Source: Crambe crambe
Lineage: Eukaryota > Porifera > Demospongiae > Poecilosclerida > Crambeidae
Length of the DNA stretch: 64,000 bases
Assembly (NCBI GenBank): GCA_963924555.1
Contig: OZ004595.1
Span: 4,954,599 to 5,018,598, forward strand
Direction of reading: 5' to 3'
Shown here one piece after another: positions 1 through 58,010 of the stretch. A model generated the notes under the pieces. It was not told the origin of the DNA. It ran no database searches and was given only the letters and a program-made list of their open reading frames with translations. The position numbers and the translations under genes are program-made. The stretch's first letter is position 1. Each line of letters starts with the position of its first letter.

Positions 1-1161
1 AACCCTTAAGTTGGAAACTTGATATGGACTTTCATATCAAAAAGTCTTTGCTGAGAAGAAGAGAGCTTTGTGGAGAGCGTAATAAGCTGTGTTCTTCCAA
101 GAAGAACATTGAGAAGCGAATAGAAAAATATGATTTCAAAATTGGCTCTATACACATCTTGAGTGATGAAAATAGGAAACCAAAGCTTGTTCCTCCATGC
201 TTCTTTGCTGACAGTCTTATCTCACCAAAAGAGAATAAACAAACAGAGCTTGATATTGACTGTGGAAAACCTGGACCTTCTGGTTTCCAGAACAAGGCCT
301 TTCAGAGGTACCTCCGTGCTTCCAGGCAGAAAGATGATGCACATTCGTCAAAGGACAGCCTTAACAGCAGAGTCAGTAATGAGGAGAAATACGAGAGTGA
401 AGGAAAGGGGAAAGATAAACAAGATGGTGTTCTGGTACAAAAAATGCTCACTGATCCTGTGTCAGGGAGTGTAAAGAATGGTAAGTGCAATACAATAATG
501 GAACATCAGAGAGAAACATTCGTACAGTCATTGAATTTTTTTTTCTCTTCTCTTAAAAGAGTCTCTCTATAGTACACAAAACAAAGAGAAATTGAAGATA
601 GAGAGAGAAAAAGATGAAGAGAAACATGAGAAGAGATTGGAAAAATCAGAGAAGATACTGGACAAGGAAACAGAGAGGAGGAAAAAGGTGAAGGCAGCCC
701 TCAATGCTCGCATAGAAGAAGATAAGGAGCTGATACAAAAGATCCAGGGAGAAATAGATGATTTGAATGCAAAGATCAATAAGAAAGTGGAGAAGATTGA
801 TGCAATGAAAGCTCGAAGGAAAGCAGAAATGGATAAACCCTTGAGTTGGAAACTTGACATGGACTTTCATATTAAAAAGTCTTTGCTGAGAAGAAGAGAG
901 CTTTGTGGAGAGTGTAATAAGCTGTGTTCTTCCAAGAAGAAGATTGAGAAGAGAATGAAAGGCTATGATCACCGAAGCCGTTCTGTACGCATTTTGAGTG
1001 AAGAGAATAGAAAACCAAAGCCTGTTCCTCCATGTTTCTTTGCTGACGGCCTAATTCCACCAAAAGAGAACGAACAAGCAGAGTTAGACACTGATCATGA
1101 AAATCTTGGACCTTCTGGTTTCCTTTCAGAGATACCTTCGTGCTTCCAGGCAGAAAGATGA
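1..1161 (+). CDS. Coiled-coil family copy A, 5'-truncated by window edge
   Basis: Two exons are visible, to 480 (donor GTAAGT) and from 560 (acceptor after TTAAAAG), joined in phase 1. The first holds a module with a basic stretch (SLLRRRELCGE), then CFFADS, GPSGFQNKAFQRYLRAS and a Ser/Glu-rich tail. The second starts ESLYSTQ, runs into a Lys/Glu heptad-like coiled coil (KSEKILDKETERRKKVKAA) and repeats SWKLDMDFHIKKSLLRRREL and CFFADG. Compared with the paralogues about 11 nt are missing near 1122, just after GPSGF, so the frame shifts and stops at 1161 while homology continues to about 1300. I recognise no known domain. The product is probably a soluble, highly charged protein. The true start lies upstream of the window. 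Confidence 0.6.
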
Positions 1162-1309
1162 CAGCCTCAATAGCTGTGCTAGTTTTGAGTCCAGTGAAGA
1201 AGAATAGCTACAAGAGTGAAGGAAAGGGAAAAGGTGGAGAAAATGGCACTCGTTACAAGAAGCTCACTGACCCCCATGTCAAGAATGGTGAGAACTATTA
1301 GTTAAGGGT

Positions 1310-1665
1310 GCAGGCTGATAGGAACACAATTTATGTTCATTTATGTTCATAGTCTCTTATAGAGTTTGCCTCTGAAAAGAGCCTCTCTATTATACTCACT
1401 GGTAGTACACAGTCCTAATCTTTCAGTGTAGCCATGCAGGGTGAGGGAATTAATACATACATCTCCATTCTCTTCAGATTCCACCTCGTTGAGAAGGATG
1501 TTCCTTTGGAGGAGCAGTTGTATTGGAAGGTTGCATAGCCAGATACTCTCACCATGAGGTGGTTTCAGCTATTTCAAGAAAGGAGTGCTACTTAGCGAAT
1601 ATTTGGTTTTATGTACCAATAGTAACTTTTCAAGAAATCGAACCAAACTTGGTTTATTGTTTATT
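1310..1665 (+). repeat. 3' flanking block shared by coiled-coil gene copies
   Basis: This block recurs almost identically at about 6655-7165, behind copy C, and in part at about 3780-3925. It ends in the near-palindrome AACCAAACTTGGTTT (1641-1655), also seen at 3907, 7143 and 10239. It is either an old 3' UTR or flanking DNA duplicated together with the genes. No convincing reading frame crosses it. Confidence 0.6.
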
Positions 1666-1971
1666 CTCTTATTTGTATCTATTATAATGTGATGCATAAT
1701 AATACATAAGGGTGTGGCCTGAGCCAACTCAGCATTTAGCTATATAGTCCTTTGAAGGCCTGGCAATAAACTATCAGCTGTTCTTTGGCACCTTAATTAA
1801 TAATGCTATCAATAGTTCGCGCATAGAGCGATCCTTTACCAATCGAATCACGACATAATTATGCGCATGTCCGTGTACGTGTTGAAATAGCGTTTTTCCT
1901 ACACGCGCTTATCGGTAAAGAGTTTTGTTTTGTGGTTCAAAAAAAAGAGAGAAAAAATTAATGCCTATGAT

Positions 1972-3278
1972 ATGTCGACATCAACAGTCAGGTCAATTTT
2001 TGTCCCTATGCTACGAAAGTTTTTCAATTTGAAAAGTGACAGTGAAGATATGGACGTTGGAGTGGACAATTCCACTACTGGCTTTACCAATATATTAGCA
2101 CACAGGAAAGAAGGAAACACTGAAGAAAGTAGAACCTCCAACTGCCAAATAGAAAAGAGCAAGCGTATCACCTACTCCAAATTTGGATCATCTCCTGATG
2201 TGGAAGAAGATGAGAGACGACTCTACACTCTACTACCTGGACAGCTGGATCTGATGGATGAGTAAGTGGTAAACTCTCTAGCTAGCTAGTTGCATTAGTT
2301 AGCATTACAATAAATAACTATATAGTAGTACAAAATTACCTAATAGCTAATACTACGCATGTTCTTGTTCTGTTTAGGCCAATACTTGGACCTGGATCAA
2401 ACATAGCTATTGATGGCAAATCTTCTACAGTAAATGGAAATAAAGGCAGTGTCTATGAAAGTCTTGAGAAGTCTAAAAACAAACCTATCACGAAGCAAAA
2501 TGCTCCAGAAAGGAAGGGAGAACAAGCACAAGATAAGGTTGAGAAGAGACTGGCTAAATCAGAGAACAAACTCAACAAGGAAACAGAGAGGAGGAAAGAG
2601 ATGCAGAAAACCATCAAATCCTGCATAGAAGAGGAGAAGCAACTCGTGGAAAAACTGCAGAATGAAATTGATGATTTAAAAAATCAAATTGGGAAGAAAA
2701 CAGAGAAGATTGAGGCAATGAAAACTCAAAAGAAGGAAAAGAGTTGGTGGAAATTTGATACAGACTTTGGTATTGCTAAATCTTGGATGAGGAGAATGGA
2801 CCTTTATGGAAAGCGTGACAAGCGATTGATTTGGAAAGGGAAGACTAACAAACGAATCAAAAAGTACAAACGCAAGATTCAGTGTGATCTGCAGGTTATG
2901 AATGATAAGAAACCAGCTCCACAAAGGCCAATACCTTCATGTTTTTTTGCTAAGGGCCAAGTTCCACCAAAGAATAAGGAACAAGTAGAGATTCATGATC
3001 ATACTGATGACAATCCCAGGTCCTCTGGTTACAAGCAGAACCAAAGCCAGAAATTCCTTAGTACTTCTAGGGGAAAAGATGAGCTAGATGATATCAGGAA
3101 CATCTATGTTCTTGACAGTGATGATGATACACACTCATCAAATGGCAGCATTGCAAACAGCATCAGTTCGGAATCTGATGAGGAGAAAGAAGTGAAGAGG
3201 AAGAGGAAACCGAAGCGTTCGGATACATTTCATACTAAAGAAGCTACTTGGATCCTAAATCAACTCACCCTATCTTAA
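1972..3278 (+). CDS. Coiled-coil family copy B (single-module type)
   Basis: Exons 1972-2261 and 2378-3278 join GA|G across a GTAAGT...TTTAG intron and give an uninterrupted 396-residue protein. The start ATG is chosen by alignment with copy E, which begins MSGWTVRSIF against MSTSTVRSIF here. Exon 1 ends in the family boundary LLPGQLDLMDE. Exon 2 carries a long basic coiled coil (roughly residues 140-200), then SWWKFDTDFGIAKSW, a second basic helix, PSCFFAKGQVPPK and an acidic/Ser tail (DSDDDTHSSNGS). It ends WILNQLTLS. Only one module is present, unlike copies A, C, D and F. No secretion signal or membrane segment is visible. Function is unknown and I match no named family. Confidence 0.75.
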
Positions 3279-4437
3279 GGGTTGACGTTCTAGCTAAGAG
3301 ACCTCCAATGTCCAGACCAAAACAACAACAGCAAAAAATTATAATAATAAAAATAAATTCATATTAAATTTTTGGGCAAAATAATTATAGCTATCTGCAG
3401 ATATAGCTCTAAAAATAGTCTTATTATGCATTATAGTTGATACTTTGGCTTAGCTAGCTATAATCCACTGCATTCTTAGTTGATGGCTACTGGATCAGTT
3501 AGCTATTTTAATATCTTTTATCACCTTGTTGTTGGTAGGGCCATTATCTTATACACTTCTCAAAAGTTTGCATATAGCTCTACGTAGCTAGCTAGATATT
3601 AGCTATCGTAAGCAGATCTTTTAACAGCATTAAAGTCTGGACAAAATGTGGCCGCCATTTGTGACATATTTAGACCATATAGTGCAGATAGACATTGTAG
3701 CTAGAACAAGAAAACAAAATATTCCGGAGTATATATATAGCTACGTAATTTGAACAAACTGTTGTTCTTTAGAAGGTGACTGACCCTGTGTCAAGAATGG
3801 TGAAAACTATTAGTTAAGGGTGCAAGCTGAGTACCTCTAATAGAAGCATAGAAACATAATAATAAATAACTGAATTGGTTTTATGTACCAATAGCTCAAG
3901 ATATTGAACCAAACTTTGGTTTTGTTATTATTTGTGCTGCATAATTAGCTACATGCATAGATAACACATAAGGTAGCTAGTTACCACATGTTATAGTTAG
4001 AAGGTGAGCTTGAAAACCTTCCACTCAGAGGCCTGACTACAATATACTTAGCTACACCTTTCACCCCACCATACACAGAGCTATAGCTAAAAATTTGGGC
4101 ACAGTGAGAGCACAGTATTGTGTGCATGACCTGACATGCCATACTACTCAGTCCTGCCAGATTACATGTAATTGTGACATTATATGAACTGATATTACAT
4201 GAACTGACATTAATTGTGTAGGTTAATTGAATACTGGATCAGATATAGCTACTCCTAGTGCCACAGATTATATACATCATGTAGCTAGCACCGATGATAA
4301 AGAAACTATGCATCCATATTCATATTATTATTTTTGCTTGAGTAGTATGGCTTTCTCTTTTGAGATAGCTAGGTTGATCAGGTGCAGATATCCGGCGTTG
4401 CCGACCCTTTACCTGCTTTGTTCAGATATCGTGAGCT
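3279..4437. other. Intergenic DNA with a remnant 3' end of a family copy
   Basis: A possible AATAAA polyadenylation signal lies near 3346-3358. At about 3768-3832 there is a decayed piece matching the 3' end of copies A and C (GTGACTGACCCTGTGTCAAG), followed by the AACCAAACTTTGGTTT block at 3907-3922. From about 3960 to 4215 the sequence resembles the DNA upstream of copy D (about 7200-7460), which shows that C and D are tandem duplicates including their 5' flanks. No intact gene is seen. Confidence 0.5.
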
Positions 4438-4538
4438 TAGTCTCGCTAGCCAGACTCCTTTTCCCCTCACTATCTTTGCACATACACTTACTTGCACGCG
4501 CGATAGTGAGGGGAAAAGGAGTCTGGCTAGCGAGACTA
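4438..4538. mobile_element. Foldback element with 37-bp perfect inverted arms
   Basis: Arms 4438-4474 and 4502-4538 are perfect reverse complements around a 27-nt loop. The outer sequence is TAGTCTCGCTAGCC. If the outer TA is the target duplication, the element proper starts GTCTCGC. It sits just upstream of the deleted exon 1 of copy C. Short hairpins with similar TAGTCTGG ends occur at 27698 and 49061. It carries no coding capacity. Confidence 0.75.
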
Positions 4539-4589
4539 TCGCCAGTGATCTCTCGAGACTCAGAGTCGCATGCGCATGTACGCGCATGT

Positions 4590-6626
4590 TCCATTGCCTG
4601 GAGCATTGATGGATGAGTAAGTATAGCCTGTATCCTGCTAGCATATTTTAACTGAGCTAACTAACTAATTTTGGTGAGAATCTTCATGATAGTTAGCTAT
4701 ATAGTTACACATGTGTGCAATTGTGGATAGATACAAACATGAAGTGGATGTATCATTGTAAGAAGGTCAAATTTATGCTGAGCAGTTTATAGCTGTAGGG
4801 TAGCTACTTTATTGTACAATAATTATTATTAATTCAGGCCTGGATTGAATGACAGCAATACAATGATGATCAAGCAGTCATTCAAGGAAAAGGAAAAAGG
4901 CCATGGTACAAATACTGAAGTCATTGTTGCTGAGACGAAGGAAATTTTTATAATGTATCTGAGGAAGCAAAAAACCCGAGAAGAAAAGGAGAGGAAAAGG
5001 GGAGAGAAAGTAGAAGCTAAACTCCAGAAGAGACTGGCCAAGTCAGAGAAGAAACTTGATATGGAAACAGAGAGGAAGAAGAATGTGAAGGCAGCCCTCA
5101 ATGCTCGCATACAAGAGGAAGAGGAACTCATGCAAAAGATACAATGATTTTGATGCCAAGATCAATAAGAAAGTGATGTAATGAAAGCTCAAAGGAAAGC
5201 AGAAAAGGATAAACCCCTAAGTTGGAAATTTGATATGGACTTTCATATTAAAAAGTCTTTGCTGAGAAGAAGAGAACTTTGTGGAGAGCGTAATAAGCTG
5301 TGTTCTTCGAAGAAGAAGATCGAGAAGCGAATAAAAGACTATGATCACCAAAACCATTCTATACGCATTTTGAGTGAAGAGAATAGGAAACCAAAATCTG
5401 TACCTCCATACTTCTTTGCTGACGGTCTTATCCTACCAAAAGAGAATAAACAAACAGAGTTTGATATTGACTGTGGAAAACCTGGACCTTCTGGTTTCCA
5501 GAACCAGGCCTTTCAGAGGTACCTCCGTGCTTCCAGGCAGAAAGACGGTGTGCATTTGTCAAAGGACAGCCTTAACAGCAGAATCAGTAATGAGGAGGAA
5601 TGCAAGAGTGAAGGAAAGGGGAAAGACAAAGAAGATGCAGGGGCAGAAACACCACAACAAAAGTGGGGGAGGGTGGGGGGGGGGGGGCTGGTGGCACATA
5701 CCACAATGTACTAATATTATTCAATTATCAACTGTCAAAAAAGTGGGCATCAACTGTCAAAAAGTAGGGGGGGGGGGTAGAGTCCCCCCCCCCCCTCTGC
5801 CACTGAGATGGTGTTCTGGTACAAAAAATGCTCACTGATCCTGTGTCAGGGAGTGTAAAGAATGGTAAGTGCAACACCATGTCATAGGGAAACATATATG
5901 TACAGACATTGAAAATATTTTCTCTTAGAGCCTCTCCATAGTACACAATTGCCGATAAAGAGAGAAAGAGATGAAGAGAAGCATGAGAAAAGACTGGCTA
6001 AGTCGGAGAAGAAACTGGACAAGGAAACAGAGAAGAGGAAGAAGGTGAAGGCAGCCCTCAATGCTCGCATACAAGAGGAAGAGGAGCTCATGCAAAAGAT
6101 ACAGGAAAAAATTGATAATTTCAATGCAAAGATCGATAGGAAAGTGGAAAAGATTGATGCTATGAAAGCTCAAAGGAAAGCAGAAAAGGATAAACCCTTG
6201 AGTTGGAAACTTGACATGAACTTTCATATCAAAAAGTCTTTACTGAGAAGAAGAGAGCTTAGTGAAGAGCATAATAGGCTGTATTCTTCGAAGAAGAAGA
6301 TCGAGAAATAAATAAAAGATTGTGATCACCAAAACCGTTCTATACACATTTTGAGTGAAGAGAATAGAAAACCAAAGCCTGTACCTCCATGCTTCTTAGC
6401 TGACGGCCTAATTCCACCGAAAGAGAATAAGCTGAGTTAGATAATGATAATGAAAAGCCTGGACCTTCTGGTTTCCAGAACCAGGCCTTTCAGAGATACC
6501 TTCGTGCTTCCAGGCAGAAAGATGACAATCTCAACAGCTGTGCTAGTTTTGAAGAGGAATACAAGAATGAAGGAAAGGGAAAAGGCAGAGAAAATGGCAC
6601 TTCATTACAAAAGAAGCTCACTGACC
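4590..6626 (+). pseudogene. Coiled-coil family copy C (multiply broken)
   Basis: Only the last 27 nt of exon 1 survive (to 4616, GTAAGT donor). Exon 2 is 4838-5864 and exon 3 starts at 5929. Damage seen by comparison with copy D: exon 1 and the proximal promoter are deleted; deletions near 5144 and 5176 shift the frame and create a TGA; a 168-bp transposon sits at 5638-5805 in exon 2; a TAA at 6309 replaces an Arg codon in exon 3; and a further stop follows GLIPPKENKLS. Splice sites and most module motifs (SWKFDMDFHIKKSLLRRREL, YFFADG, GPSGFQNQAF) remain recognisable, so the decay is fairly recent. A short product could start at the ATG at 4608, but it would end at 5146. Confidence 0.85.
5638..5805. 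mobile_element. hAT-like MITE inserted in copy C exon 2
   Basis: A 168-bp insertion interrupts the paralogous sequence of exon 2. Its ends are imperfect inverted repeats: CAGGGGCAGA on the left, and CAGTGGCAGA when the right end is read inward. It is flanked by the direct repeat AGATG (5633-5637 and 5806-5810). The interior has long G and C runs and no reading frame of its own. CAGGG-type termini are typical of hAT elements, but a 5-bp target duplication is shorter than the usual 8 bp. Confidence 0.75.
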
Positions 6627-6639
6627 CTGATGGTGAGAA

Positions 6640-7630
6640 CTATTAGTTGAGGGTGTAGGCTGATAGGAACACAATTTATGTTCATTTATGTTCGTAGTCT
6701 CTTATAGAGTTTGCCTCTGAAAAGAGCCTCTCTATTATACTCACTGGTAGTACACAGTCCTAATCTTTCAGTGTAGCCATGCAGGGTGAGGGAATTAATA
6801 CATACATCTCCATTCTCTTTAGATTCCACCTCGTTGAGAAGGATGTCCCTTTTGAGGAGCAGTTGTATTGGAAGGTTGCATAGCCAGATACACCATGAGG
6901 TGGTTTCCGGGTACGACACGTACACTTCTGTGGTGTTTCTTTCTGAATTCCAAGCAAGTGATTATCGAAACAATCTCACCAGTAGCTACAAGGCAGAGTG
7001 GGATGATCCCAAACAATTTCGCTCCTGACCTCGAGGAAGAGTCCAGCTACATGAGTCAGCTACTTCAAGAAAGGAGTAGTTTATAGCTACTTCAACTGAA
7101 TTGGTTTTATGTTACCAATAGCTAGTAACTTTCAAGAAATTGAACCAAACTTTGGTTTATTCAAATGCTTTCATTTATTATTATAATGTGCTGCATAATT
7201 ACATTTATAGATAACACATAAAGAGGTAGTGGCTAGTTACCACATATGTTATAGCTAGAATTCGAGTTCAGCCTTTAATTTAGTTACACTGTCTCTTTAA
7301 CCATACACAGACATATTATTTCAAAGCAGATTGGTCCAAAAAATTTGGGCATAACGGCATTAGCTATTGTGTGCATGAGCTGACATGCGTCCTACCAGAT
7401 TACATGTAATTGCTACATGAACTGACATTACATGACTGCATGAACTGCAAGTTGAATTCAAGATATTAAAGATATAAATTTTAGTGTCACAGATATACAT
7501 GTATGAGCTACCACAGATGATAAAGAAACCTGCCTAAGTCATATGATGGAATTGACTTGAAACTGTTGCTATTTTTTACAAGAAAGTCAGCTGTTCAGAT
7601 CTTGGCTATATCTATCTCAAGCTTGCAAGA
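6640..7630. other. Intergenic DNA between copies C and D
   Basis: The first half repeats the 3' flank of copy A (1310-1665), including AACCAAACTTTGGTT at 7143-7157. The second half resembles the 5' flank of copy C. The small open frames here are not conserved between the duplicated copies, so I call no gene. Confidence 0.5.
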
Positions 7631-7823
7631 CCTAGACGCGCGCGCGTGGGATCAGAGTCCGCATGAGCGCGTACGCGCATGCCCGCTAGAACTAGCGTCA
7701 GAGCAATTGTACGCTTTTTGGAGAACGCGCTAGTTCTTGGTGTTTTGCTAGAAAGTGACTTTTTATCGCGAGAAATTTATTTGAGTCATTTATAGTTGAA
7801 ACTCGAGAATAATCTCGGGGAAA
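7630..7823 (+). promoter_or_regulatory. Conserved CpG-rich promoter block of copy D
   Basis: The roughly 190 bp before the copy D start are unusually rich in CG and alternating purine-pyrimidine runs (GACGCGCGCGCG, GCGCGTACGCGCATGC). They are shared, in inverted orientation, with the DNA upstream of copy F (57178-57365), including AACTAGCG, GCGTACAAT and TCTCGCGATAA-type blocks. A short part (CAGAGTCGCATGCGCATG) survives upstream of broken copy C. Conservation across the inverted duplicate, while other intergenic DNA has diverged, suggests a core promoter. No transcription start is mapped. Confidence 0.45.
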
Positions 7824-9870
7824 ATGAGCTTTTTGAAGAATTCGAGAAAGTGTTTTGAGGAACACGACTCCAATGCTGGTCCAAAGAGGTCAGCAGAGAA
7901 AAAATGGACAGTCAAGTCGATTTTTGGCTCTGTGAGACGTAAGATTAAGAAGATGAAAAGAATTCCTGAAGAAGAGAAAAATCCCGCAGTCGAGGAAAAC
8001 GACTTTACTGATATCTTGACATGCAGCAGCAAGGAAGCAGTGTGTGGAACCAACTGCCAGATAAAGATGAGCAAGTGTATCATCTATTCCCCTCTGATTG
8101 AACCTGAACCATCTCGTGTGGATGAGCAGGGGCAACAATATGTTCCATTGCCTGGAGTTTTGATGGATGAGTAAGTCTAGCCTGTCCAGTTCAATCTAGC
8201 TATTTTAAAGGAACTAGTTAATGTGGGCAAACAAACTGAGCCAACACACTAATCTTCATGATAGTTATTAGTTACACATGTGTGCAATTGTGAATATTAC
8301 AGAAAGATAATACAATGTTTTATCATTGTGCTGAACAGTTAGGGTACAAATAATGGTTTGTGCTATAATTATAATAATTATTATTTTTTTAAATTCAGGC
8401 CTGGATTGAACGACAGCAATACAATGATGATCAAGCAGTCACTCAAGGAAAAGGAAAACGTTCGTGGTCCAAATACTAAAGTCATTGTTGCTGAGATGAA
8501 GGAAATTCCCAAAAAAGATAAAAAATCTCTGAAGAAGCAAAAAGCCCGAGAAGAAAAAGAGAGGAAAAGAGGAGAGAAAGTAGAAGCTACACTCCAGAAA
8601 AGACTGGCCAAGTCAGAGAAGAAACTTGATATGGAAACAGAGAGGAGGAAGAAGGTGAAGGCAGCCCTCGATGCTCGCATACAAGAGGAAGAGGAACTCA
8701 TGCAAAAGATACAGGGTAAAATCAATGATTTTGATGCCAAGATTAATAAGAAAGTGGAGAAGATTGATGCAATGAAAGTTCAAAGGAAAGCAGAAAAGGA
8801 TAAACCCTTGAGTTGGAAACTTGATATGGACTTTCATATCAAAAACTCTTTGCTGAGAAGAAGAGAGCTTTGTAGAGAGCGTAATAAGCTGTGTTCTTCC
8901 AAGAAGGAGATTGAGAAGCGAATAGAAAAATATGATTTCAAAATAGGTTCTGTACACATTTTAAGTGATGAGAATAGGAAACCAAAGCCTGTGCCTCCAT
9001 GCTTCTTTGCTGATGGTCTTATACCACCAAAAGAGAATATTGACTGTGGAAAACCTGGACCTTCTGGTTTCCAGAACAAGGCCTTTCAGAGGTACCTCCG
9101 TGTTTCCAGGCAGGAAGACGATATGCATTCATCAAAGAACAGCCTTAACAGCAGAATCAGTAATGAGGAGGAATATGAGAGTGAAGGAAAGGGGAAAGAC
9201 AAACAAGATGGTGTTCAGGTACAAAAAATGCTCACTGATCCTGTGTCAGGGAGTGTAAAGAATGGTAAGTGCAATACTATAATGGAACATCAGAGAGAAA
9301 CATTCATACAGTCATTGAATTTTTTTTTCTCTTCTCTTAAAAGAGTCTCTCTATAGTACACAAATGCAAAACAGAGAAGAAAAGAAGAATCCAATGTTAA
9401 AAAGAGAGAAAGATGAAGAGAAGCATGAGAAAAGACTGGCTAAGTCGGAGATGAAACTGGACAAGGAAACAGAGAGGAAGAAAAAGGTGAAGGCAGCCCT
9501 CAATGCTCGCATACAAGAGGAAGAGGAGCTCATGCAAAAGATACAGGGAGAAATTGATGATTTTGATGCCAAGATCAATAAGAAAGTGGAGAAGATTGAT
9601 GCAATGAAAGCTCAAAGGAAAGCAGAAAAGGATAAACCCCTAAGTTGGAAACTTGATATGGACTTTCATATCAAAAAGTCCTTGCTGAGAAAAAGAGAGC
9701 TTTGTGGAGAGCGTAATAAGCTGTGTTCTTCAAAGAAGAAGATTGAGAAGCAAATAAAATACTATGACCACCGAAGCCGTTCTGTACGCATTTTGAGTGA
9801 AGAGAATAGAAAACCAAAGCCTGTACCTTCATGTTTTTTTGCTGATGGCCTAATTCCACCAAGAGAATAG
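7824..9870 (+). CDS. Coiled-coil family copy D (two-module type)
   Basis: Exons 7824-8170, 8399-9264 and 9344-9870 join in phase to give 579 residues. Exon 1 (1-115) is basic, with KKWTVKSIFGSVRRKIKK, and ends PLPGVLMDE. Exon 2 holds module 1: a coiled coil at about 150-297, SWKLDMDFH at 254-262, CFFADG at 317-322, GPSGFQ at 336-341, then a Ser/Glu-rich linker. Exon 3 repeats the module: coiled coil about 425-545, SWKLD 505-509, CFFADG 568-573. It stops soon after GLIPPRE, so the second GPSGF segment is lost, although decayed sequence for it continues to about 9975. No signal peptide or membrane helix is visible. Tropomyosin- or golgin-like roles cannot be distinguished from sequence, and the function is unknown. 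Confidence 0.75.
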
Positions 9871-10345
9871 TTTTGAAATTTGCTGTGGAAAACTTGGACC
9901 TTCTCAACAGTGGTGTTAGTAATGAGAGTGAAGGAAAGGGGAAGGCAAATAAAATACTCACTGACCCTGTGTTAGCTTATGAAATCCTAGCCAGACTATG
10001 AACGAAGGTATTTTAATAATGAACATCTACAAGCACACACTCCAAAGAAGGATCATTTTTTTCAGCCAAATTCCTTTATCCTGTGAGACCCCCCACCTAT
10101 CACTTGCCTGCATCCAGTGAAGCCTGCCCCCAGAAGTGAGCCTGTTGCACTCCTCATGGAAAAAAATTCCGGCTAGGAGACGTTCCTATCAGTAATTTCA
10201 AGAAAGGACAATTAGCTACATCTAGCTACATATAACTGAACCAAACTTGGTTTATTTGTCATCATTATCACTGATTTGTATCAAATTGTTATTCAATCAA
10301 AAAGATAAAAATAAGTGCTGCATAAAGTACCTAATAGCTGTAGTC
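9871..10345 (+). other. Decayed tail of copy D module 2 and flank
   Basis: About 9880-9975 still resembles the GPSGF/Ser-rich tail of the module (TGTGGAAAACTTGGACCTTC, then GAAGGAAAGGGGAAGGC and CTCACTGACCCTGTGT), but it lies beyond the stop and is shortened. The AACCAAACTTGGTTT block occurs at 10239-10253. Nothing else is recognised. Confidence 0.5.
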
Positions 10346-10762
10346 TGGGTCATACCTCTTATAAAGCTTACCTTCATTTTGGACTTTAAAGGGGTGGCTA
10401 AAACAAGTCTAAGGATCTCTTTAAAATGTGGGTCATACCTCTTATAAAGCTTACCTTCATTTTGGACTTTAAAGGGGTGGCTAAAACAAGTCTAAAGATC
10501 TCTTTAAAATGTGGGTCATACCTCTTATAAAGCTTACCTTCATTTTGGACTTTAAAGGGGTGGCTAAAACAAGTCTAAGGATCTCTTTAAAATGTGGGTC
10601 ATACCTCTTATAAAGCTTACCTTCATTTTGGACTTTAAAGGGGTGGCTAAAACAAGTCTAAAGATCTCTTTAAAATGTGGGTCATACCTCTTATAAAGCT
10701 TACCTTCATTTTGGACTTTAAAGGGGTGGCTAAAACAAGTCTAAGGATCTCTTTTAAAATGT
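10346..10762. repeat. 83-bp tandem repeat, five copies
   Basis: GGTCATACCTCTTATAAAGC recurs at 10348, 10431, 10514, 10597 and 10680, exactly 83 bp apart. The copies are nearly identical, but the segment CTAAGGATC alternates with CTAAAGATC from copy to copy, so the true unit of recent amplification is a 166-bp dimer. It lies just past the 3' end of FARSB. Confidence 0.95.
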
Positions 10763-10798
10763 GGTAATTATTATTATTATCATTAAAAAAAATATTTT

Positions 10799-13700
10799 TT
10801 ACAAGAATGGTTCAATGTCCAATTCGAGAGCTGAGGCAGGCATGTTGAGTTCAAAGGCACTCAACACTTCAGGATGCAATACTCCCAGTTTTCCCACCAC
10901 ATTTCCCCGGGCTACGATCTCCGCACACCTCCCGGGAAAGAACGTGGAATCTATGGATCAAAGGATAGAGGATCATGTGACACACACCGTAATAATTAAG
11001 GGGGTAATTAATTACGAGTGCCCAGACGTACCACTGACAGCTTGGATGAAGTAACCAGAACCATCTTTAGCAAACGGCACCTCTAGCAGCTGCATGACTC
11101 TATCCAAAAGTCCATGGATCACCTGGTGAGGAACAATAGACATTATTTATAACTACGATGGCACAGCCTATCACTATTTCAGGGCATGGAAAAGTACCCT
11201 GGCACCCGGAAGGAAACTGATCACACCAGAAAACAACATGAACTCGACATGCTTGACTTATGTGGACCCTATGCGTACAACGGTTGATGACTATGACTAT
11301 TGTATGTTATAGATGACTGGTCATGTGACTGGTCATGTGACTGGTCATGTGACTATGCATGTATGACAGGGTTCATATTGGTTCATGAAAGTGAAGCATT
11401 GTGATAACACGGTCGCACATACAATATGTTGGGGGAATCCCATCAATCCCTTTACAACCTGGAATCAGTCACTGTCACATGATCCATGACCATCTATACA
11501 ACAGAACCCTGTACCCAACCTGGAACCAGTCGTATTAGGACCATTCATGGATTATAGGACTTCTTTTGAATCTTTTACGTACGTACTTCAAAACCTGGTG
11601 TTTTATTATAGTAGACTGCACACAATCTTCGGTGATTCTTGGCCCCAACATCTGGAATCACAGTACATACATATATACAAAAAATAAAGTCATACTTGCA
11701 TGAAAATGAAATGAAACTTGTACTTCTTCTTAATAACATTAACAGGGTTCTCCCCAGGCATCCCCAGGCATTTTAATGCCCTTATTATTCACTGGCTTCT
11801 GCACCAGGAGCCATCTCATAATCATTAGGCTTGATGGTGATCATGGTCTTGCCCTTAGGTCCTGGGGAGAACCCTGAAATAGTTGGAAACAACAACAGAA
11901 GAATCTGATAGAGCCATAAGCAGAACCTTTTAAACACTGAAAATTTGGTTGGAAAGGAAGTTTGGAAATGGACCCCATTACATAACTCTAGCTGGCTACC
12001 TCACACAGCTGCACCTTTTTTGCTGTCTTTCAAGACCACGTCAGATACTTCGAACATCTTTAAAGGAAGAGGCAACTTTTTATTGGCAGCAATTGTCTTG
12101 AGGAGGCCTGGAAGGAGAGTGGTCCGTGCAATCTACATACAGACAACTCATCATCCATTGTATTAAGAGTCATAATTATTAGGGGAGACTCCCTGACAAG
12201 GACTCCATGCAATGCATCTTTAGACCACTGAAATGAGGACATTCTAATAAGAACACTTTCTTGAGTCCCATTGCAATAATAATTATTGTGTATTAATTCA
12301 CTAAGAGGACAGAGATCCAACTTAGGCATCCTTTACCCTGAGCATTATATGTACCTGGAATTCGAGTGTTTTAGGATTACTAATGTGGACAGCAGGAATG
12401 TCTTTGATATCTTTCCTCAAATAAGTAGCCACGTCATCACGAGAACACTGTAATAATGGGATACATAATGTACATAGCTAGCACATATAAACATAATTGT
12501 CAAACTTAATAGTGTATCAAAAATCAGCCAGTTATGAAGAATTAAAGTGAATAATGTCTAAATCAGGCTGGAAAGGCACCATTGGGTAAGGGGTACTCTA
12601 ACAGGTAAAGGGTCATCTAACAGGCAAAAGGCATATATGCATAATCACTTACCAAAGCAAATGTAAGGGCCTCAGTGAATCCAGCCCGAGCTATTCCACC
12701 TTTTAACTGATCTGAGAGCTTGTTGATGGGCAGCTGCAAAAAAGTATAACAAGCAACACTTCTCTAACATGGTGTTTCAGGTAATCTTCTACTACTCACT
12801 TGGTGTGCTATGCAGTTGGTGTTTGGAATGGTCATCTTGATGTTGTTGAAACCATAGGCAATAGCCACATCCTCCATAATGTCACAAGGATGGATGACAT
12901 CTGTGTGTCATGTATGTAAGTAAACCTTTCTTAGAGGGACAATGTCACACGGATGGATGCACTGATGTATGCATGAAGGACACTTAAATAATAATAGCAA
13001 GTAAAACAGAGTTACATCAGTTGCAAAAGGAAGATGAACTAGGAATTGCTTGTAAAGCGTTGTTGGGCGAGCGAAGTAATGTTGATAATGTGAAGTTATG
13101 TCCTCATGCACATACATGCAGTTTACACAATTTTTTTTTTTTTGTAAATTATTGGTGGGAGGGGCACATGCATTTCTTTCGTCCAGCCTAGTTATCTCTT
13201 TCTCCTTTTTTCTGTTTTTAGCCTTTGCTGGCTCCATACTACGTATAGTAGCTAATTGTCAAATTCACAAGATTAGTTTGTTGTTGTTGTTTTTTTGCTA
13301 ATCAACATTAAAATGAGTCTTTGTTGTCGCTTAACTAGCAATTGGTTCAGCATATGCACAATGATAATTTTTTGACGTACGTATATATATATATATATTT
13401 ATTATGTAGTTACTGAGCATGTCCCATAGAGAATAGTAGTATCACAACTAGGGTGATATTTTACCATATCGCGTAGTCATATTACGTCCCCCTGGGCAAT
13501 CTTTGCATAATGATTTATTTTATAGCCATGATAATATATAAGTGAAAAATTAGACTATACTTCCTTTTCAAGAGTTAAAAAAATAATTCTGCTGAACTCC
13601 TAGGGGAAAAAATCCAGTAGCTAATTATACTATGGCAATGTGCAATTTGACAACAAGTAGTAAAAACATTTGACAGCAAGTGAAGCAAGTACAGCTATAC

Positions 13701-19243: not shown

Positions 19244-27587
<8,344 letters not shown>

Positions 27588-28085: not shown

Positions 28086-31000
28086 TTAAACTATCTTGAT
28101 GGTTGATACGGCTCCTACATAACTTCTTTCGTACTTCATTTGCATCATATATGTCCAAGAATCCGTCTCGGGATCGTACTTCTCCACACTGGAGAGCTGT
28201 TCTGCTCCGTCGAACCCACCCACTGCAACGATCTTCCCGCTCAGGAGAGCTGCGCCCACCCCTGCCCGAGGGGAACTCATAGGACTCAGCGTCACCCAGG
28301 TGTTCTCCCGAGGATCGTAACGCTCGAGAACGCAGAGGTTATTCCGTTCATCGTGTCCTCCGAAGACGTAAATATGGTCCTTGTATGTCACTGCACCCAC
28401 GGCGCTGCGACGATGGTTCATATGCATAGCCGAAAACCAGCGGTTTAGCTTCGGGTCGTACCTCTCCACAGTGTTTAGAAACATACAGGCGTGGCAGCCC
28501 CCAATGGCATAAATACTGTCCTCAAATGTAGCCACTCCTGGACTGTCCCTCCGCATGTTCATGCTGGCAATCGATTCCCATTCCCCCGTCTGGGGACTGT
28601 AGCGTTCGGCTGAGCGGAGTCTTAGAGTGCTGTCTTGGCCTCCAATGGTGTATATAAAACCATCATGGACTATCACACCTGATGGGGCAGGAAAATAACA
28701 ATGAGTCATGCTAGACAAACTGAAATCTTATAGTCACTTGATCACTTGATCATTCCAACCAAATTAAATTTAAAACACCAGCCAAGTAATCTCTTAATAG
28801 TAAGAAATGGCTAACAACGAGGGGTTCCACATTTAAGGGTCACTATACTGAGGGGTTCTACAGATGTAACATACCAGCACTGGCTCTTCTATGCTTGAGA
28901 GGAGCAATCATCTTCCATCGGTTCATTCTCGGGTCAAACACCTCCACTGTGTTCTGAAACCTCTGTCCATCATGCCCTCCGATGGCGTACAGCAGTCCAT
29001 TGAGGATCGCAAGCCCCACCCCATTACGGGGGATGTGGGTGGGGCTACCTGTCTCCCACACACCAGTCTCAGTGTCGTAGCACTCGACCATTTTGATGGC
29101 TGTGTTACCATCCCAACCTCCAATGGCATACAGCTTCTCGTGAGGCTTGCGAGTATGTAATCTGTGTGGTTCAATCTGAAAGAAAGAAAGAAAAAAAAGG
29201 TGTAGGAAAGAAGATATGAAACACAAGAACGTAAATTTCAACCTGAATCTTCATGCATTGCATCAGAGCTTGAAATAATTCCCTTTCAATTTTGTTGTCG
29301 GACCAACAGGAAATGACCAGACGAACTGCAGCTTTGCCTGGACATTTCAGTTTGTTATATACTTATAATTGCCCCTGAGTAAATTAATTTCAGGTGTGAT
29401 TATTTTGCTGGCTAGAGACTAGGTTTTCCCCTTTTGGGTTGGTCCAACCAACATTCAGTACTTTAAAAATGGTCAAGTATTTCTTTTAATGACTGGGAGT
29501 ACACAAAGTCGATCAGTGCAAATTCAGTGCTCTGCCATTAATGTCTGGTTAAAATGTAATTTAATTAACCCTGGGGGTATTACACTTCTGCATGTAGGAG
29601 ACACTTGTATGGAGTGCTTGAACTCAAGAAGTACAAAGGATTCTTAATTGGATTAAGTTGGAGCCATTGATTGAAGCCTTTAACTCAATTATAAAGCTTC
29701 AGAATCAGAGTCCAGATACTAGGCACTCTGACCTGGAAACATTAGTGCAATTAGATCCCCAAACCATAATCTGTACAAGTCATGCACACAGACTAGACAA
29801 GAAATTGCCTTTTAATTGATCAGTTTAATTATTGTTACGTTATTATATTATTGTGGTCATGTGTGATTGGCCAATTACAATACACTATGATGGTCATGTG
29901 ACCATGCATGGAGGTCATCTACTAAGGTATCAATGGCATTCACTGGATCCTTCATTATATTTAACTAACCACCTCATTATAGTATGTGATCGGCTCTGAA
30001 ACAATACCGACACCTGTGAGCCCTTTATCTGGCTCAAGGAGAAGCAGCCCTCTTGTTGGTGAAGCCTAATAATTGTTCTTCTGACTGTTATACACAAGTA
30101 TTTTTTACCCATGGCTCTGCTGGCATTTGAAATTTGGTCAAGAATTTGAGAGAGTTAGAGTAGTGTATTGATCAAAGATGATAAGTGAATGCATAGACTT
30201 TTAGAATGCAGTTATATCAAAATTATCCTGTCGTTTCAGATATGCAATTCTCTGCAGTTAAAGCCTACTACATAACAACATTATGATTGCTGAATGATCA
30301 TTATTTAAATACTGTTTATGGAACGTGTATGGAGAATTAATAACTCTGACCTCAGAGGCTCTACCATATCAAAGTAAAGTGAAAACCAATCAGTTAGTTG
30401 TGAAATGTCAAAAAGGGTTTGTTACTGACAAGTTACACCGCTGAATTCACAATTCCTTTCATGCAGGGTTACCATGATACTGTACCCACACTAAACAAAG
30501 TTAGTAACTATGCCACATATGTAGCATAATACTAGTAGTCCATAGGTAAATACAGTGGAACCTCACACTCCGAATAAAGGTCACCTCTCTGTAACGGACA
30601 CTTGTTGCTGTCCCACCATAGTACTTTGTGTATTAAATGACCTCTGAATAAAGGTCACCTCTCTGTAACGGACACTTGTTGCTGTCCCACCATAGTACTT
30701 TGTGTATTAAATGACCTCTGAATAAAGGTCACCTCTCTGTAACGGACACTTGTTGCTGTCCCACCATAGTACTTTGTGTATTAAATGACCTCTGAATAAA
30801 GGATACCTCTCTACAAAGGACAATTTCAGTGGCCCCAGATTGTCTGTTATTCAGAGGTTCCACTGTATTGCTTTGATGGTTGGACAATCTCCTGAGCTTT
30901 ATAATTTCTATCTCTAGGCATTTCATAGATCTACTCAATTATATTATTGCCGAATCAAAAACTTGCAAAGGGATCACTATAAAGCTGCGTCTATTTGATC

Positions 31001-34000
31001 TAATTTGTGACCATGTGACCACCCAACAATCCGTAACCCACTGCATTTGTTGTTGGGAGTGAATTCGGGACAGGAATGAGCCAATCAATTGGCCTGAATG
31101 GATCAAAGCATGCCTCCAGTCTTATGCAGTTAATTGAGCTTCAAAACACTGCGCAATCGATAAGTGTAGTCTGTGATATCTGTGATATCATATAATATGG
31201 TTTACTTTTTTGAATATTGAAGAGAGTTTTTGAATTCATACAGTATGGGCTGGATTTTTAAACGACTTTCTTATGCTCCCCCCACCACCACCACCACCAC
31301 ACACTAACTCACAAAATGTAGCTCTTTTACATAAAGTAGCTCAGGTATTTCAAGATGTTAAAATCTCAGTTACATTAATGAACATACCACTAGCTATGTG
31401 GTGAGGGAAATTAATAGCACCCAACGGCTTTCAAGACTATATTATTCACTGTAAAGAATTAATACTTCGGCCCTTTAGCCTCCAGAGGTCGTTGTATGTA
31501 TTCAAATGCACTGCATTCCAGAACATCAGCCATTGTGACAACAACAGCCACGACAAAGCACACCACTCGACTACAGGAATTCAATAAGTTAGCTGCTAAC
31601 CTTATTGGCAAATTAAGTAAAAATTGCTGCAATTGTTCTGAGGTATGTACATTATCATGTAAACAGATGTGAGCAACCTTGTATGTCTTCAGGTACTAGA
31701 ACTTAATAGTTATTACTTCAGTCCTAGCAAAAGCCACTCCCAATCAATCAAATTCTTTAGGCTAAAACTGTGCTCAATAATCCATGTCCAACTCATAGTG
31801 GTAGCCATGGTGACTGGACCCATGGGAGATACAAATAATCAAATGTACAGTCCTAGCAAAAGCCACTCCCAATCAATCGAATTCTTTAGGCTAAAACTGT
31901 GCTCAATAATCCATGTCCAACTCATAGTGGTAGCCATGGTGACTGGACCCATGGGAGATACAAATAATCAAATGTATAGTCCTAGCAAAAGCCACTCCCA
32001 ATCAATCGAATTCTTTAGGCTAAAACTGTGCTCAATAATCCATGTCCAGACTCATAGCGGTAGCCATGGTGACTTGACCCATGGGAGATACAAATAATCA
32101 AATGAACTGCTACAAGATTGGTACAAGCTTGATACATCTTTCAAGGATCCTTTCAAGTGCTTTGAGACGGTTTGCTGTGTTAAATTACCCCTATTGCAGA
32201 GCTCAGACCAAATCCTGTGGTGATGCGACTGCTTGCTATATGTTACCACTATTGCAGTGGCCTTATGTTACCACTATTGCAGTGGCCTATGTATAGGGAG
32301 GTGGTCATCGAAAAAGATGCTTTGGGACATGGTGGAGTGACCTTCGTGGTCTCATTATAGGGTGGTCTGATTAGATAGTTAACCCATTGTACATTATATA
32401 TTTTTTGATAATGAAAAAGAAACCTTACAAATTTAAGGGTTATTTGATGTGATTTTACTCCAAAAAACAAACGAACAAAAAAACCTTTCCACACACATCA
32501 ATGAGCTTAACAGTCGGTGCAGTTAAAAAGGACAAGGCTGGTGAGCTGATGCTGATACAAGCAAACTGAAAGGAAGTCAGTAGTCTTTGATCTGAAGAAA
32601 ATAAGCTTAAGCTGATAATTCTGGAACACACCTGCTTTTGAAGTTGATTTAATGTGCCTTGTGCTACGAAAAAAAAAGATTTTGTGAAATCTTTTGAAGT
32701 TGATCATAAAATGGCCTAGGGCCATATCAGCTCTTTGAAGTACGGTGTATTAACTACAGATACAAAAACCTTAGGCTAGCTGTTTCGCTTTTGAAGCTGA
32801 TCAAGCCATGTAAAATGTTGGCAGACAGCTTTTTGAAGTCTAGAGGTACCGACATGCGCATATGCATCAGCTGCAAGCCCGTTTTTATTAGGCCTAAAAA
32901 TCGATGAATGAATTCTATGTCAAACTTTCAGGTTACGATATAGAGTTTGCTTATGAATAATTCATAAGTTAATGAGCTACACTCTGTTCTAGCCATGAGC
33001 CTTTTTTGTTGAAAACTGCAGCTTGTGCCTGAGAAGCATCTCTTACTCTACAGCTGAGTGCAAAAATGACTCCCTGGAAAGCTATGGTTACGGAGAAACA
33101 CACCGCTTATGGCTGCCTACCTCGATCGATTTCTAGTCGGCAAATTTTTCCAACCTCAGTTGCTCGATAACTGCATTCTGTGCTTATTTCAGTCCAACAG
33201 ACTGATATCTAGGGACAAATTGAGAGTTCTTGGCTAAATGATGAAGCTATCTTCAGATACGGCAACTTTTACCTGGTTTTACCGCGACCGATCAGCTTTG
33301 AGTAGCTGTAACTCTTGTTCACTACTTTTCTGGTTCAAAATTACTCAGTACGGCCCTGCCCACTAGCTTGAATAACCATCAAATACGGCCAAGGTTGGGA
33401 AACTAATTGAGGTAAGGTAGCCATAGTGGTGTTTCTCCGTAACCATAGCTTTCCAGGGAGTCATTTTTTACACTCAGCTGTAGAGTAAGAGGTGCTTCTT
33501 AGGCACAAACTGCAAGTTTTCAACCAAAAAGGCTAATGGCCCAGCTCATTAACTCATGAATTATTCATAAGCAAACTCTAATTATCGTAACCTTAAGATC
33601 TCTTTATTTAGGTGTATGTATAGACATCCTGGCACTATTTGAACAGGATGGGTTACAGCCTCTATACAAGATCAGACAGGTAGGATATGCTAGGATTATT
33701 AATAGGATATGCTGGAATAATCTTTGAACAGGACCTCTATACAAGATCAGACTATAGGATATGCTGGAATAATCTTTGAACAGGATGGGTTACAAGATCA
33801 GACTGCCCCATCAATAGGATATGCTGGAATAATCCTTGAACAGGATGGGTTACAAGATCAGACTGCTCCATCAATAGGATATGCTGGAATAATTTGATAA
33901 GTCGACTAGGACAGGATATGATACTTCCAACTAATGTAGTTATGTATGCAAACAAAAAAAACTTTGAACTTCACTTTGACAGAATTAAGGGGGGACCAGT

Positions 34001-37000: not shown

Positions 37001-37510
37001 GGCTCTCCTCACTTCCTCGAACTGCAACACACTGGCTGCAGGAAGAATGGACTGGACATTCTCCTCTGAAATCTCTATGACTGCACTGTATGCATAGTCT
37101 ACCAAGCTCTTCAAAGAGGCTGCATCCATTCCATTTATGGTGATGACTCTCTTCTTGCTCTCTGCCATCTCACCAGTGAACATAGCACGGAAATAAGCAC
37201 TCAGGGAGGCAAGGACTACTCGATGACACGGAATCTTTGTCCCATCCACTTCGAGAATCACATCGCAAAGCTGCTCAGCTTCTCTGAGAGCGTCCATCTC
37301 CATGAATGCTCCGCTGAACTGGCTATCGGAGTGAAATCGCATCACCCCTTTGCTGTCCACGTCTATAATGCTCTCTTCAAGGCAGAGATCGTACAAGCGA
37401 TTTTGAAGGCCTTTATAGTCCACGGGGCTCGATTGAGATCGAGATTCAGGAGAGTAAGTGGCTGGTCCGCTGCTGGGCGATAAAAACATGCCACCATCAA
37501 GAGGATCCAT
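28086..37510 (-). CDS. BTB-BACK-Kelch protein (KLHL family)
   Basis: Likely substrate adaptor of a Cullin-3 ubiquitin ligase. Exons 36566-37510, 28875-29175 and 28086-28678 join in phase to 612 aa; the 7.4-kb intron could hide another exon. Residues 1-75 are a Ser-rich leader. The BTB domain (about 80-180) has LCDVILEVDGTKIPCHRVVL and YFRAMFTGEM. The BACK domain follows (about 190-300; NCLGIKVFAEVHGC, LPLLNTEQLL). Six Kelch blades follow: YAIGGWDG, YAIGGHDG, YTIGGQDS, YAIGGCHA, YVFGGHDE and VAVGGFDG. An in-frame ATG at 37615 would add 35 residues; I prefer the later one because the leader there aligns no better. I cannot assign a specific KLHL orthologue. The gene is divergent from the ROCO gene. 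Confidence 0.9.
30551..30867. mobile_element. TACAGTGGAACCTC MITE with internal 74-bp tandem repeats
   Basis: The ends TACAGTGGAACCTC (30551) and GAGGTTCCACTGTA (to 30867) are perfect inverted repeats with TA at each edge. Inside, a 74-bp unit (GAATAAAGGTCACCTCTCTG at 30572, 30646, 30720, then partial at 30794) repeats slightly more than three times. It sits in the Kelch gene intron. Confidence 0.88.
31721..32107. repeat. 129-bp tandem repeat, three copies
   Basis: GTCCTAGCAAAAGCCACTCC starts each unit at 31721, 31850 and 31979. The copies are over 95% alike by eye. Because 129 is divisible by three, an open frame runs through all three, but it lies inside the Kelch intron and looks like a repeat artefact. 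Confidence 0.92.
32930..33593. mobile_element. 664-bp foldback element with long arms
   Basis: The left arm from AGGTTACGATATAGAGTTTG (32930) to about 33125 pairs with the right arm from about 33415 to CGTAACCT (33593), with scattered mismatches over roughly 180-195 bp. A spacer of about 290 bp separates them. No transposase frame is visible, so it looks non-autonomous. It is in the Kelch intron. Confidence 0.8.
33685..33900. repeat. About 60-bp tandem repeat, three to four copies
   Basis: AGGATATGCTGGAATAAT recurs at about 60-bp steps (around 33757, 33817 and 33877, with a shortened first copy). It lies in the Kelch intron. Confidence 0.85.
34140..36565. other. Rest of the Kelch gene intron
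   Basis: A degenerate direct duplication (about 34155-34260 and 34340-34435, sharing TTTATCAAAGG and GAATGAAC blocks), a poly-G/GA run near 34778 and AT-rich unique DNA are visible. The six-frame reading shows nothing I would call an exon. Confidence 0.45.
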
Positions 37511-53087: not shown

Positions 53088-54341
53088 TTAAGATAGGGTG
53101 AGTTGATTTAGGATCCAAGTAGCTTCTTTAGCATGAAATGTATTTGGACACTTCGGTTTGCTCTTCATCTTCACTTCTTTCTCCTCATCAGATTCCGAAC
53201 TGATGCTGTTTGCAATGCTGCCATTTGATGAGTGTGTATCATCATCACTGTCAAGAACATAGATGTTCCTGATATCATCTAGCTCATCTTTTCCCCTAGA
53301 AGTATGAAGGACCTTATGGCTTTGGTTCTGCTTATAATCAGAGGGCCTGGGATTGTCATCAGTATGATCATGAATCTCTACTTGTCTTGGTGGAACTTGG
53401 CCCTTAGCAAAAAAACATGAAGGTGTTGGCCTTTGTGGAGCTGATTTCTTATCATTCATAACCTGCAGATCACATTGAATCTTTCGTTCATACTTTTTGA
53501 TACGCTTGTTAATCTTCTTTTTCCGAATCAATCGCTTGTCACACTTTCCATAAAGCTCCCTTCTCCTCAGCCAAGATTTAGCAATACCAAAGTCCATATC
53601 AAATTTCCACCAACTCTTTTTCTTCTTTTGAGTTTTCTTTTGAGTTTTCATTGCCTCAATCTTCTCTGTTTTCTTCCCAATTTGATTTTTCAAATCATCA
53701 ATTCCATTCTGTAGTTTCTCCACACGTTGTTTCTCCTCCTTTATACAAGATTTGATGGTTTTCTGCATCTCTTTCCTCCTCTCTGTTTCCTTGTTGAGTT
53801 TGTTCTCTGATTTAGCCAGTCTCCTCTCAACCTTATCTTGTACTTGTTCTCTCTTCCTTTCTGGGGCATTTTGCTTCTTCACAGCAGGTTTATTTTTAGA
53901 CTTCTCAAGACTTTCATAGACGCTGGCTTTATTCACAGTAGAAGATTTGCCATCAATAACTATGTTTGATTCGGGTGTTGACCTAAACAGAACAAAATTT
54001 GATCAAAGACATACTATAGAATTACGTAGCTATTTTGTACAGCTATTTAGCAAGTTAATTCAATTTACTACTTACTCATCCATCAGATCCAGATGTCCAG
54101 GTAGTAGAGTGTATTGTTGTCCCTCATCTTCTCCTACAGGAACTTTGGAGTGGGTGATACACTTACTCTTTTCTATTTGGTAGTTGGAGGTTCCACATTC
54201 TTCAGTGCTTCCTTCTTTCCTATTGATAAAGCCAGTAGTGGAATTATCCTCTCCAAAGTCAATATCTTCACTGTCTCTTTTAAAATTGAAAAATTTTCGT
54301 AGCATAGAGACAAAAATTGACCTGACTGTCCAACCAGACAT
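53088..54341 (-). CDS. Coiled-coil family copy E (single-module type, inverted)
   Basis: Exons 54076-54341 and 53088-53982 join GA|G and give 386 residues. It is the inverted counterpart of copy B, with the same exon structure, the same MSxxTVRSIF start and the same WILNQLTLS end. Motifs: LLPGHLDLMDE boundary, a basic coiled coil (RLAKSENKLNKETERRKEMQ), SWWKFDMDFGIAKSWLRRRE, PSCFFAKGQVPPR and a DSDDDTHSSNGS tail. Differences from copy B include an extra KKTQKK and loss of four residues after QVPP. An upstream in-frame ATG exists at 54413, but similarity to copy B begins only at 54341. Open throughout and probably functional; the role is unknown. Confidence 0.75.
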
Positions 54342-54966: not shown

Positions 54967-57177
54967 CTAGCTAGCTGACACGGCTTCTTTTGTGCCAAAA
55001 CGCCATTTTACCTTTCCTTCACTCTTGTGTTCCTCTTCAAAACTAGCACAGCTGTTGAGGCTGTCATCTTTCTGCCTGGAAGCACCGAGGTATCTCTGAA
55101 AGGCCTTGTTCTGGAAACCAGAAGGTCCAAGATTTTCATGTAACTCTGCTTGTTTGTTCTCTTTTGGTGGAAATAGGCCGTCAGCAAAGAAACATGGAGG
55201 TACAGGCTTTGGTTTTCTATTCTCTTCACTCAAGATGCGTACAGAACGGCTTCAGTGATCATAGTCTTTTATTCTCTTCTCAATCTTCTTCTTGGAAGAA
55301 TACAGCTTATTACGCTCTCCACAAAGCTGTCCTCGTCTCAGTAAAGACTTTTTGATATGAAAGTCCATATCAAGTTTCCAACTCAAGGGTTTATCCTTTC
55401 CTGCTTTCCTTTGAGCTTTCATTGTATCAATTTTCTCCACTTTCTTATCGATTTTTGCATTGAAATCATCAATTTCTCGCTGTATCTTTTGCATGAGCTC
55501 CTCTTCCTCTTGTATGCGAGCTTTGAGAGCTGCCTTCACCTTCTTCTTCTTTTCTGTTTCCTTGTCCAGTTTCTTTTCTGACTTAGCCAGTCGTTTCTCA
55601 AGCTTCTCTTCATCATTTCCTCTCTTTATCATTGGATTCTTCTTTTCTTCTCTGTTTTGCAATTGTGTACTATAGAGAGACTCTTTCAAGAGAAGAGAAA
55701 ATATATAATTTCAATGTCTGTACATTGATATTCGTATTACACTTACCATTCTTTACACTCCCTGACACAGGATCAGTGAGCATTTTTTGTAACAGAACGC
55801 CATCTTCTTTGTCTTTCCCCTTTCCTTCACTCTCGCATTCCTCCTCGTTACTGACTCTGCTGTTGAGGCTGTCCTTTGATAAATGCACATCATCTTTGTG
55901 CCTGGAAGCACGGAGGTACCTCTGAAAGGCCTGGTCTTGGAAACCAGAAGGTCCAGGTTTTTCATGATCAATATCAAACTCTGTTTGTTTATTCTCTTTT
56001 GGTGGGATGAGACCGTCTGCAAAGAAGCATGGAGGAACAGGCTTTGTTTTCCTACTTTCATCACTCAAAATGTGTACAGAGCCAATTTTGAAATCATATT
56101 TTTCTATTCGCTTCTCTATGTTCTTCTTAGAAGAACACAGCCTGTTATGCTCTGCACAAAGTTTTCCCCTTCTCAGCAAAGACTTTTTGATATGAAAGTC
56201 CATATCGATTTTCCAACTTAAGGGTTTATCCTTTTCTGCTTTCCTTTGAGCTTTCATTGTATCAATCTTCTCCACTTTCTTATTGATCTTGACATTGATA
56301 TCATCGATTTCTCCCTGCATCTTTTGCATGAACTCCTCTTCCTCTTGTATGCGAGCATCGAGGGCTGCCTTGACCTTCTTCCTCCTCTCTGTTTCCATAT
56401 CAAGTTTCTTCTCTGACTTCTGCAGCTTAGCTTCTACTTTCTCTCCCCTTTTCCTCTCCTTTTCTTCTTGGGTTTTTTGCTTCTTCAGAGACTTTTCATC
56501 TTTTGTAGAAATTTCCTTCATCTCAGCAACAATGACTTCTGTGTTTATACCATGACCTTTTTCCTTTTCCTTGAGTGACTGCTTGATCATCATTGTATTG
56601 CTGTCATTCAATCCAGACCTTAAAAAAATTTAATAATAATTACTTGCACAAACCATTTTTGTACCCTAATGATAAAACATTTTAATATCTTTCTGTACAT
56701 ATTCACAATTGCACACATGTGTAATTGATAGCTATCATGAAGATTAGTATGTTGGCTCAGTTTGTTTGTCCAAAATTAATTAGTTAAGTTAAATATCTGG
56801 ACTGGCTACACTTAGACAGGCTAGACTTACTCATCTATCAAAGCTCCAGGCAATGGAATGTATTGTTGCCCCTGCTCTTCCACACGAAATGGCTCAGGTT
56901 GAATCAGAGGGGAATAGATGATACACTTGCTCATCTTTATCTGGCAGTTGGTTCCACACACTGCTTCCTTGCTGCTGCATGTCAAGATATCAGTAAGTCC
57001 ATTTTCTCCAACTGCAGGATCTTTCTCTTCTTCAGGAATCCTTTTCACCTTCTTAATCTTACGTCTCACAGAGCCAAAAATCGACTTGACTGTCCATTTT
57101 TTCCCGGTTGACCCCTTTGGACCAGCACTGGAGTCATGTTCCACAAAATACTTTCTCGAATTCTTCAAAAAACTCAT
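54967..57177 (-). CDS. Coiled-coil family copy F (two-module type, inverted; in-frame TGA)
   Basis: Exons 56831-57177, 55747-56618 and 55252-55682 give 549 residues up to a TGA at 55252-55254. Exon 1 parallels copy D (MSFLKNSRKYF, KKWTVKSIFGSVRRKIKK, PLPGALIDE). Exon 2 has module 1 with SWKIDMDFHIKKSLLRRGK, CFFADG and GPSGFQDQAF. Exon 3 has the second coiled coil and SWKLDMDFHIKKSLLRRG, and ends KDYDH. The TGA replaces a CGA Arg codon found in copies A and D. Beyond it the same frame stays open for about 95 codons (RSVRILSEENRKP, CFFADG, GPSGFQNKAFQRYLGAS) to 54967. I set the feature to include this tail. Translation most likely ends at the TGA. Promoter sequence is shared with copy D. Confidence 0.72.
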
Positions 57178-57365: not shown

Positions 57366-57674
57366 AATCAATCAATCTTAGCAATGTAAAGCCCAAAGGG
57401 CATATGCAAAATAAACGGGGAAAAAAGAATGTCAGGTGACTGAGGGAGGCTACTCAGGTGTAACATAAAAATGATTTATAACAAGTGATAAGTCAGATTC
57501 TGATGATGACAGAGCAGAGAATATGCGTTGTTAATATGCGCATGCGTACATGTATACGTACTCACAATAATATTATAATACCACTCTAATTGTAGTTCTT
57601 CAAAGTTTATTTCACTGCATGACTTGAGTAAGATTATTATTTAAGATATTAGTTAATTCAGTGAGATAAAATGG
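57366..57674. other. Spacer upstream of copy F
   Basis: A CAAT-repeat (CAATCAATCAATCAATC) begins near 57361 and a GCGCATGCGTACATG stretch lies near 57540, reminiscent of the promoters of other copies and possibly belonging to the decayed copy beside it. No gene is seen. Confidence 0.4.
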
Positions 57675-58010
57675 CAACCCTTAAATAGGGTAAGTTGATT
57701 GAATATCCAAGTAGCATCCTTAGTATAAAACGTATCCAAACACTTCTTCTTCTTTACTTCTTTCTCCTCATCAGATTCCAAACTGACCCGCTGTTGCCAT
57801 TTGATTAGTGTGTAACATCATCACTGTCAAGAACATAGTTCCTGATATCATCTAGCACTTCCTTTCCCCTAGAGGTACATTATAGTTCAGCTTGTAACCA
57901 GAGGGCCTGGGATTATCATCAGTATGATCATGAATTCCATAAAGATTTAGCAATACCAAAGTCTGGTTCAAATTCCCACCAACTCTTTTTTCTTTTTTGA
58001 ACTTTCATCG
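57675..58010 (-). pseudogene. Decayed single-module family copy (B/E type)
   Basis: On the minus strand, sequence matching the end of copies B and E can be followed: the terminal WILNQ-type region near 57685-57720, the SDEEKE and DSDDD tail near 57760-57840, the DDNPRPSGYK segment near 57890-57930 and the SWWEFEPDFGIAKS segment near 57950-57990. Several indels break the frame and the CFFAKG region is deleted. There is no exon 1. Confidence 0.8.

What the first reader, a model, noticed from the sequence alone, without database searches (positions are those of the whole stretch)
1..9870. Unrecognised modular coiled-coil gene family in a tandem cluster
Copies A-D share an architecture I cannot match to a known domain family: a short basic exon 1 ending PLPG/LLPG...MDE, then one (B) or two (A, C, D) modules of basic coiled coil, SWKxDxDFxI, a second basic helix, CFFA(D/K)G..PP and, in the two-module type, GPSGFQ..FQRYLRAS. 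Splice phases are conserved (phase 2, then phase 1). This is the strongest candidate here for an undescribed, lineage-restricted gene family.
Basis: partly seen in the sequence, partly recalled or inferred. Interest (0 to 1): 0.75.

Follow-up and report, generated by a model that had tools for sequence, protein, structure and literature searches.

The report
Undescribed helical-hairpin gene family, sponge genome
A small cluster of duplicated genes encodes proteins built around one or two long helical hairpins that match none of the protein-family libraries searched; selection still preserves the first hairpin while several copies are decaying, and what the proteins do is not known.

The parts
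1..480 (+). Gene A, 3' part of exon 2 (first module); exon 1 and the exon 2 start lie upstream of the window (-991..-645 and -400..0)
   Evidence: open frame of 325 aa with no stop
560..1161 (+). Gene A exon 3 (second module), frame broken near 1121 by an 11-base deletion; stop in the shifted frame at 1159-1161
1972..2261 (+). Gene B exon 1, ends at GA|GTAAGT (phase 2); 97 aa counting the split codon
2378..3278 (+). Gene B exon 2, single module, reads to TAA; about 396 aa in all
4438..4538 (.). MITE-like perfect inverted repeat (37-nt arms) where exon 1 of C would be expected
4586..5637 (+). Pseudogene C: last codons of exon 1, intron, disrupted exon 2
5929..6646 (+). Pseudogene C exon 3 with an in-frame TAA and a later frameshift
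7824..8170 (+). Gene D exon 1, 116 aa counting the split codon
8399..9264 (+). Gene D exon 2, first module; predicted hairpin helices at residues 39-132 and 138-188 of P0002 (whose first residue, from 8397-8399, is an artefact of reading from the acceptor)
9344..9870 (+). Gene D exon 3, second module; frameshifted to a TAG just after CFFADGLIPP
53088..53982 (-). Gene F exon 2 (B type, inverted), open to its stop
54076..54341 (-). Gene F exon 1
55252..55682 (-). Gene E exon 3 (second module) up to a premature TGA at 55254-55252
55747..56618 (-). Gene E exon 2 (first module), open
56831..57177 (-). Gene E exon 1
57664..57935 (-). Decayed B-type remnant G

Best explanation
[not shown]
Confidence: 0.5

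Rival explanations
1. [not shown]
Confidence: 0.35
2. The ORFs belong to a mobile element or a captured viral gene rather than a host family.
For: Small decayed fragments exist on two other chromosomes; a DDE-type (pogo/Tigger-like) ORF lies nearby at 59.5-61.7 kb. Short terminal repeats and target-site duplications around the copies were not looked for.
Against: Apart from decayed pieces, the copies found lie at two places on one chromosome with conserved introns. One viral-contig scan with one query found no relative.
Confidence: 0.08
3. A divergent member of a known animal coiled-coil family, hidden because coiled coils evolve fast.
For: Fold matches are generic and at levels common for long helices, so distant kinship is not excluded. 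No animal proteome could be searched.
Against: No Pfam family reaches its cut-off for 7 of 7 proteins, which include the non-coil parts with the conserved elbow and tail.
Confidence: 0.25

Closest known systems
PspA/IM30 (Vipp1) type helical hairpins
   Different: Pfam PspA_IM30 scores 9.5 bits against a cut-off of 33.9; the exon 1 helix is not significantly amphipathic and is separated from the hairpin by a long stretch
CT398/HP0958-type coiled-coil hairpin proteins
   Different: Bacterial; 12-15% identity; Z in the range that warns is common for long helices
PI3K p85 iSH2 hairpin and LSD1 tower (animal helical hairpins; partner docking recalled)
   Different: No sequence match to them in the PDB sequence searches; no SH2 or oxidase domain here
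Taxonomically restricted tandem gene families of animals (recalled kind)
   Same: Local duplication, pseudogene decay, no library match
   Different: Restriction to a lineage not tested here

Membership tests
PspA/IM30 (PF04012) | Pfam profile score above gathering cut-off | tested here: not met
   9.5 bits against 33.9 for gene B exon 2; not listed for the other six proteins
PspA/IM30 (PF04012) | Long antiparallel helical hairpin | tested here: met
   [not shown]
PspA/IM30 (PF04012) | Amphipathic membrane-binding N-terminal helix (recalled) | tested here: inconclusive
   Moment reached by 662-2121 of 5000 shuffles in six copies, so amphipathicity is not shown; membrane binding itself cannot be tested here
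CT398/HP0958 hairpin proteins | Fold match standing clear of unrelated helical proteins | tested here: inconclusive
   [not shown]
Duplicated protein-coding gene family | Paralogous copies with conserved splice phases | tested here: met
   6 of 6 copies read; self-alignment
Duplicated protein-coding gene family | Purifying selection on coding sequence | tested here: met
   Exon 2 dN/dS 0.29-0.40 and exons better conserved than first introns; exon 1 inconclusive for B-F
Duplicated protein-coding gene family | Transcription | not testable with these tools
   No RNA data available
Lineage-restricted (orphan) family | No homologues outside the lineage | not testable with these tools
   No animal proteomes or other sponge genomes available; one viral and one prokaryote scan negative
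Mobile element ORF | Whole copies dispersed over the genome | tested here: not met
   Apart from decayed pieces on C13 and C8, copies found lie at two places on one chromosome; the searches give lower bounds
Mobile element ORF | Terminal repeats or target-site duplications | not tested
   Self-alignment listed only matches of 200 bases or more

The most novel reading that the evidence does not exclude
A new protein domain, a basic helical hairpin whose second helix opens with W-K-x-D-x-D-F-x-I and which carries a CFFA(D/K)G docking tail, that arose within a sponge lineage. There it was internally duplicated once and is now expanding and losing parts by birth and death, supplying multivalent adaptors for a fast-evolving process such as recognition of self or symbionts.
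Probability: 0.3. Interest if true: 0.5.

Novelty: new member of a known kind. Interest (0 to 1): 0.35.

Why it matters
It adds a well-defined protein module that none of the libraries searched holds, with clear gene anatomy, and a chance to watch a module duplication followed by copy-by-copy loss of the second tail. Its value depends on two open facts: expression, and whether the family exists outside this sponge's close kin.

Tried and rejected
Membrane-binding exon 1 helix: proposed from the sequence, not supported by hydrophobic-moment shuffles; the exon 1 model is low confidence. Viral origin: one viral-contig scan with one query found no relative. The one BFVD match with E below 0.001 (of 677 with E up to 10) has rmsd 21 over 202 columns and low TM-scores; I rejected it as a long-helix artefact. 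Bacterial homologues: 586 pattern matches, none confirmed. Weak NCBIfam and Pfam hits (TraP E 0.0019, a Borrelia complement-binding family E 0.0034, ArlX and others) lie far below cut-offs and fall mostly on the coiled coil; rejected. Homogenisation of the two modules within one gene: not seen, since modules cluster by position rather than by gene. Fold families absent from the VIA-align list are not excluded by it. Searches for print: six keyword searches (one search was aimed at genome notes) showed no paper on such a family in their listings, which were capped for (15 of 18; 10 of 22). The library lacks most subscription journals, so this is weak evidence of absence.

Papers: of PMC12166358 (Crambe crambe genome note) and PMC13087572 (Diacarnus genome note) I saw the abstract in a listing and passages found by term. 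All others: search listings only.

Full report

History. An unrooted tree of 14 module sequences separates the five second modules from the rest (support 90, moderate), so the module was probably doubled once before the genes multiplied. Support within first and second modules is mostly low (38-91). The one-module genes B and F are 62-67% identical to two-module DNA; I is 56-59% identical to it and 71% to B and F.

Known families. Pfam and NCBIfam gave nothing above cut-off; PHROGs and PDB sequence searches gave only weak matches. A viral-contig scan and a prokaryote-genome scan found no relative. No animal collection was available, so the claim of lineage restriction stands untested.

Whose genome. 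The total of 143.14 Mb in 119 contigs, and C18 6.57, C13 7.57 and C8 9.17 Mb, compare with Crambe crambe: 143.20 Mb in 124 scaffolds, with chromosomes of 6.57 (GC 40.5%), 7.57 and 9.18 Mb. The window has 40.4% GC. The counts, the numbering and the last length differ slightly, and only three lengths were compared, so this is likely but not proven.

How it may work. The conserved parts are the hairpin, its second-helix opening and (except in I) the CFFA(D/K)G tail, in a basic protein with a Ser/acidic tail. My best guess is an intracellular adaptor in which hairpins pair or bind a partner and the tails dock others. This mechanism is inference. The gene structure, the selection and the hairpin prediction are the shown parts.

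Noticed in passing
L040:7486-9901 and L057:1-500 (minus strand): Diverged family member I carries internal repeats (an EDKGELKKLPKL-like unit in exon 2 and repeated exon 1-like units), not seen in the cluster copies.
   Followed up: partly
window 1258-1560 and 6600-6905: 3' flanks of A and C are 95-100% identical and were found nowhere else in the genome by one DNA search: recent conversion or duplication.
   Followed up: partly
window 4438-4538: MITE-like perfect inverted repeat of a dispersed family, placed where exon 1 of C would be expected.
   Followed up: partly
window 59497-61674: Open 725-aa ORF with HTH_psq and DDE_1 domains, pogo/Tigger-like, with a Cys/His-rich C-terminal end that looks like a PHD finger by eye (recalled; Pfam at E 0.001 did not list one).
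   Followed up: no
window 44110-46449: 780-aa open frame with a COR-A domain.
   Followed up: no
window 47383-47871 and 50950-51630: Two astacin metalloprotease open frames near each other.
   Followed up: no
window 28086-37642 (minus strand): BTB-BACK and Kelch open frames, perhaps one KLHL/Keap1-like gene, inside the spacer between the two arms of the family.
   Followed up: no
window 10263-10860, 22471-23271, 41414-41896: Tandem repeats of about 83, 84 and 21 bases.
   Followed up: no
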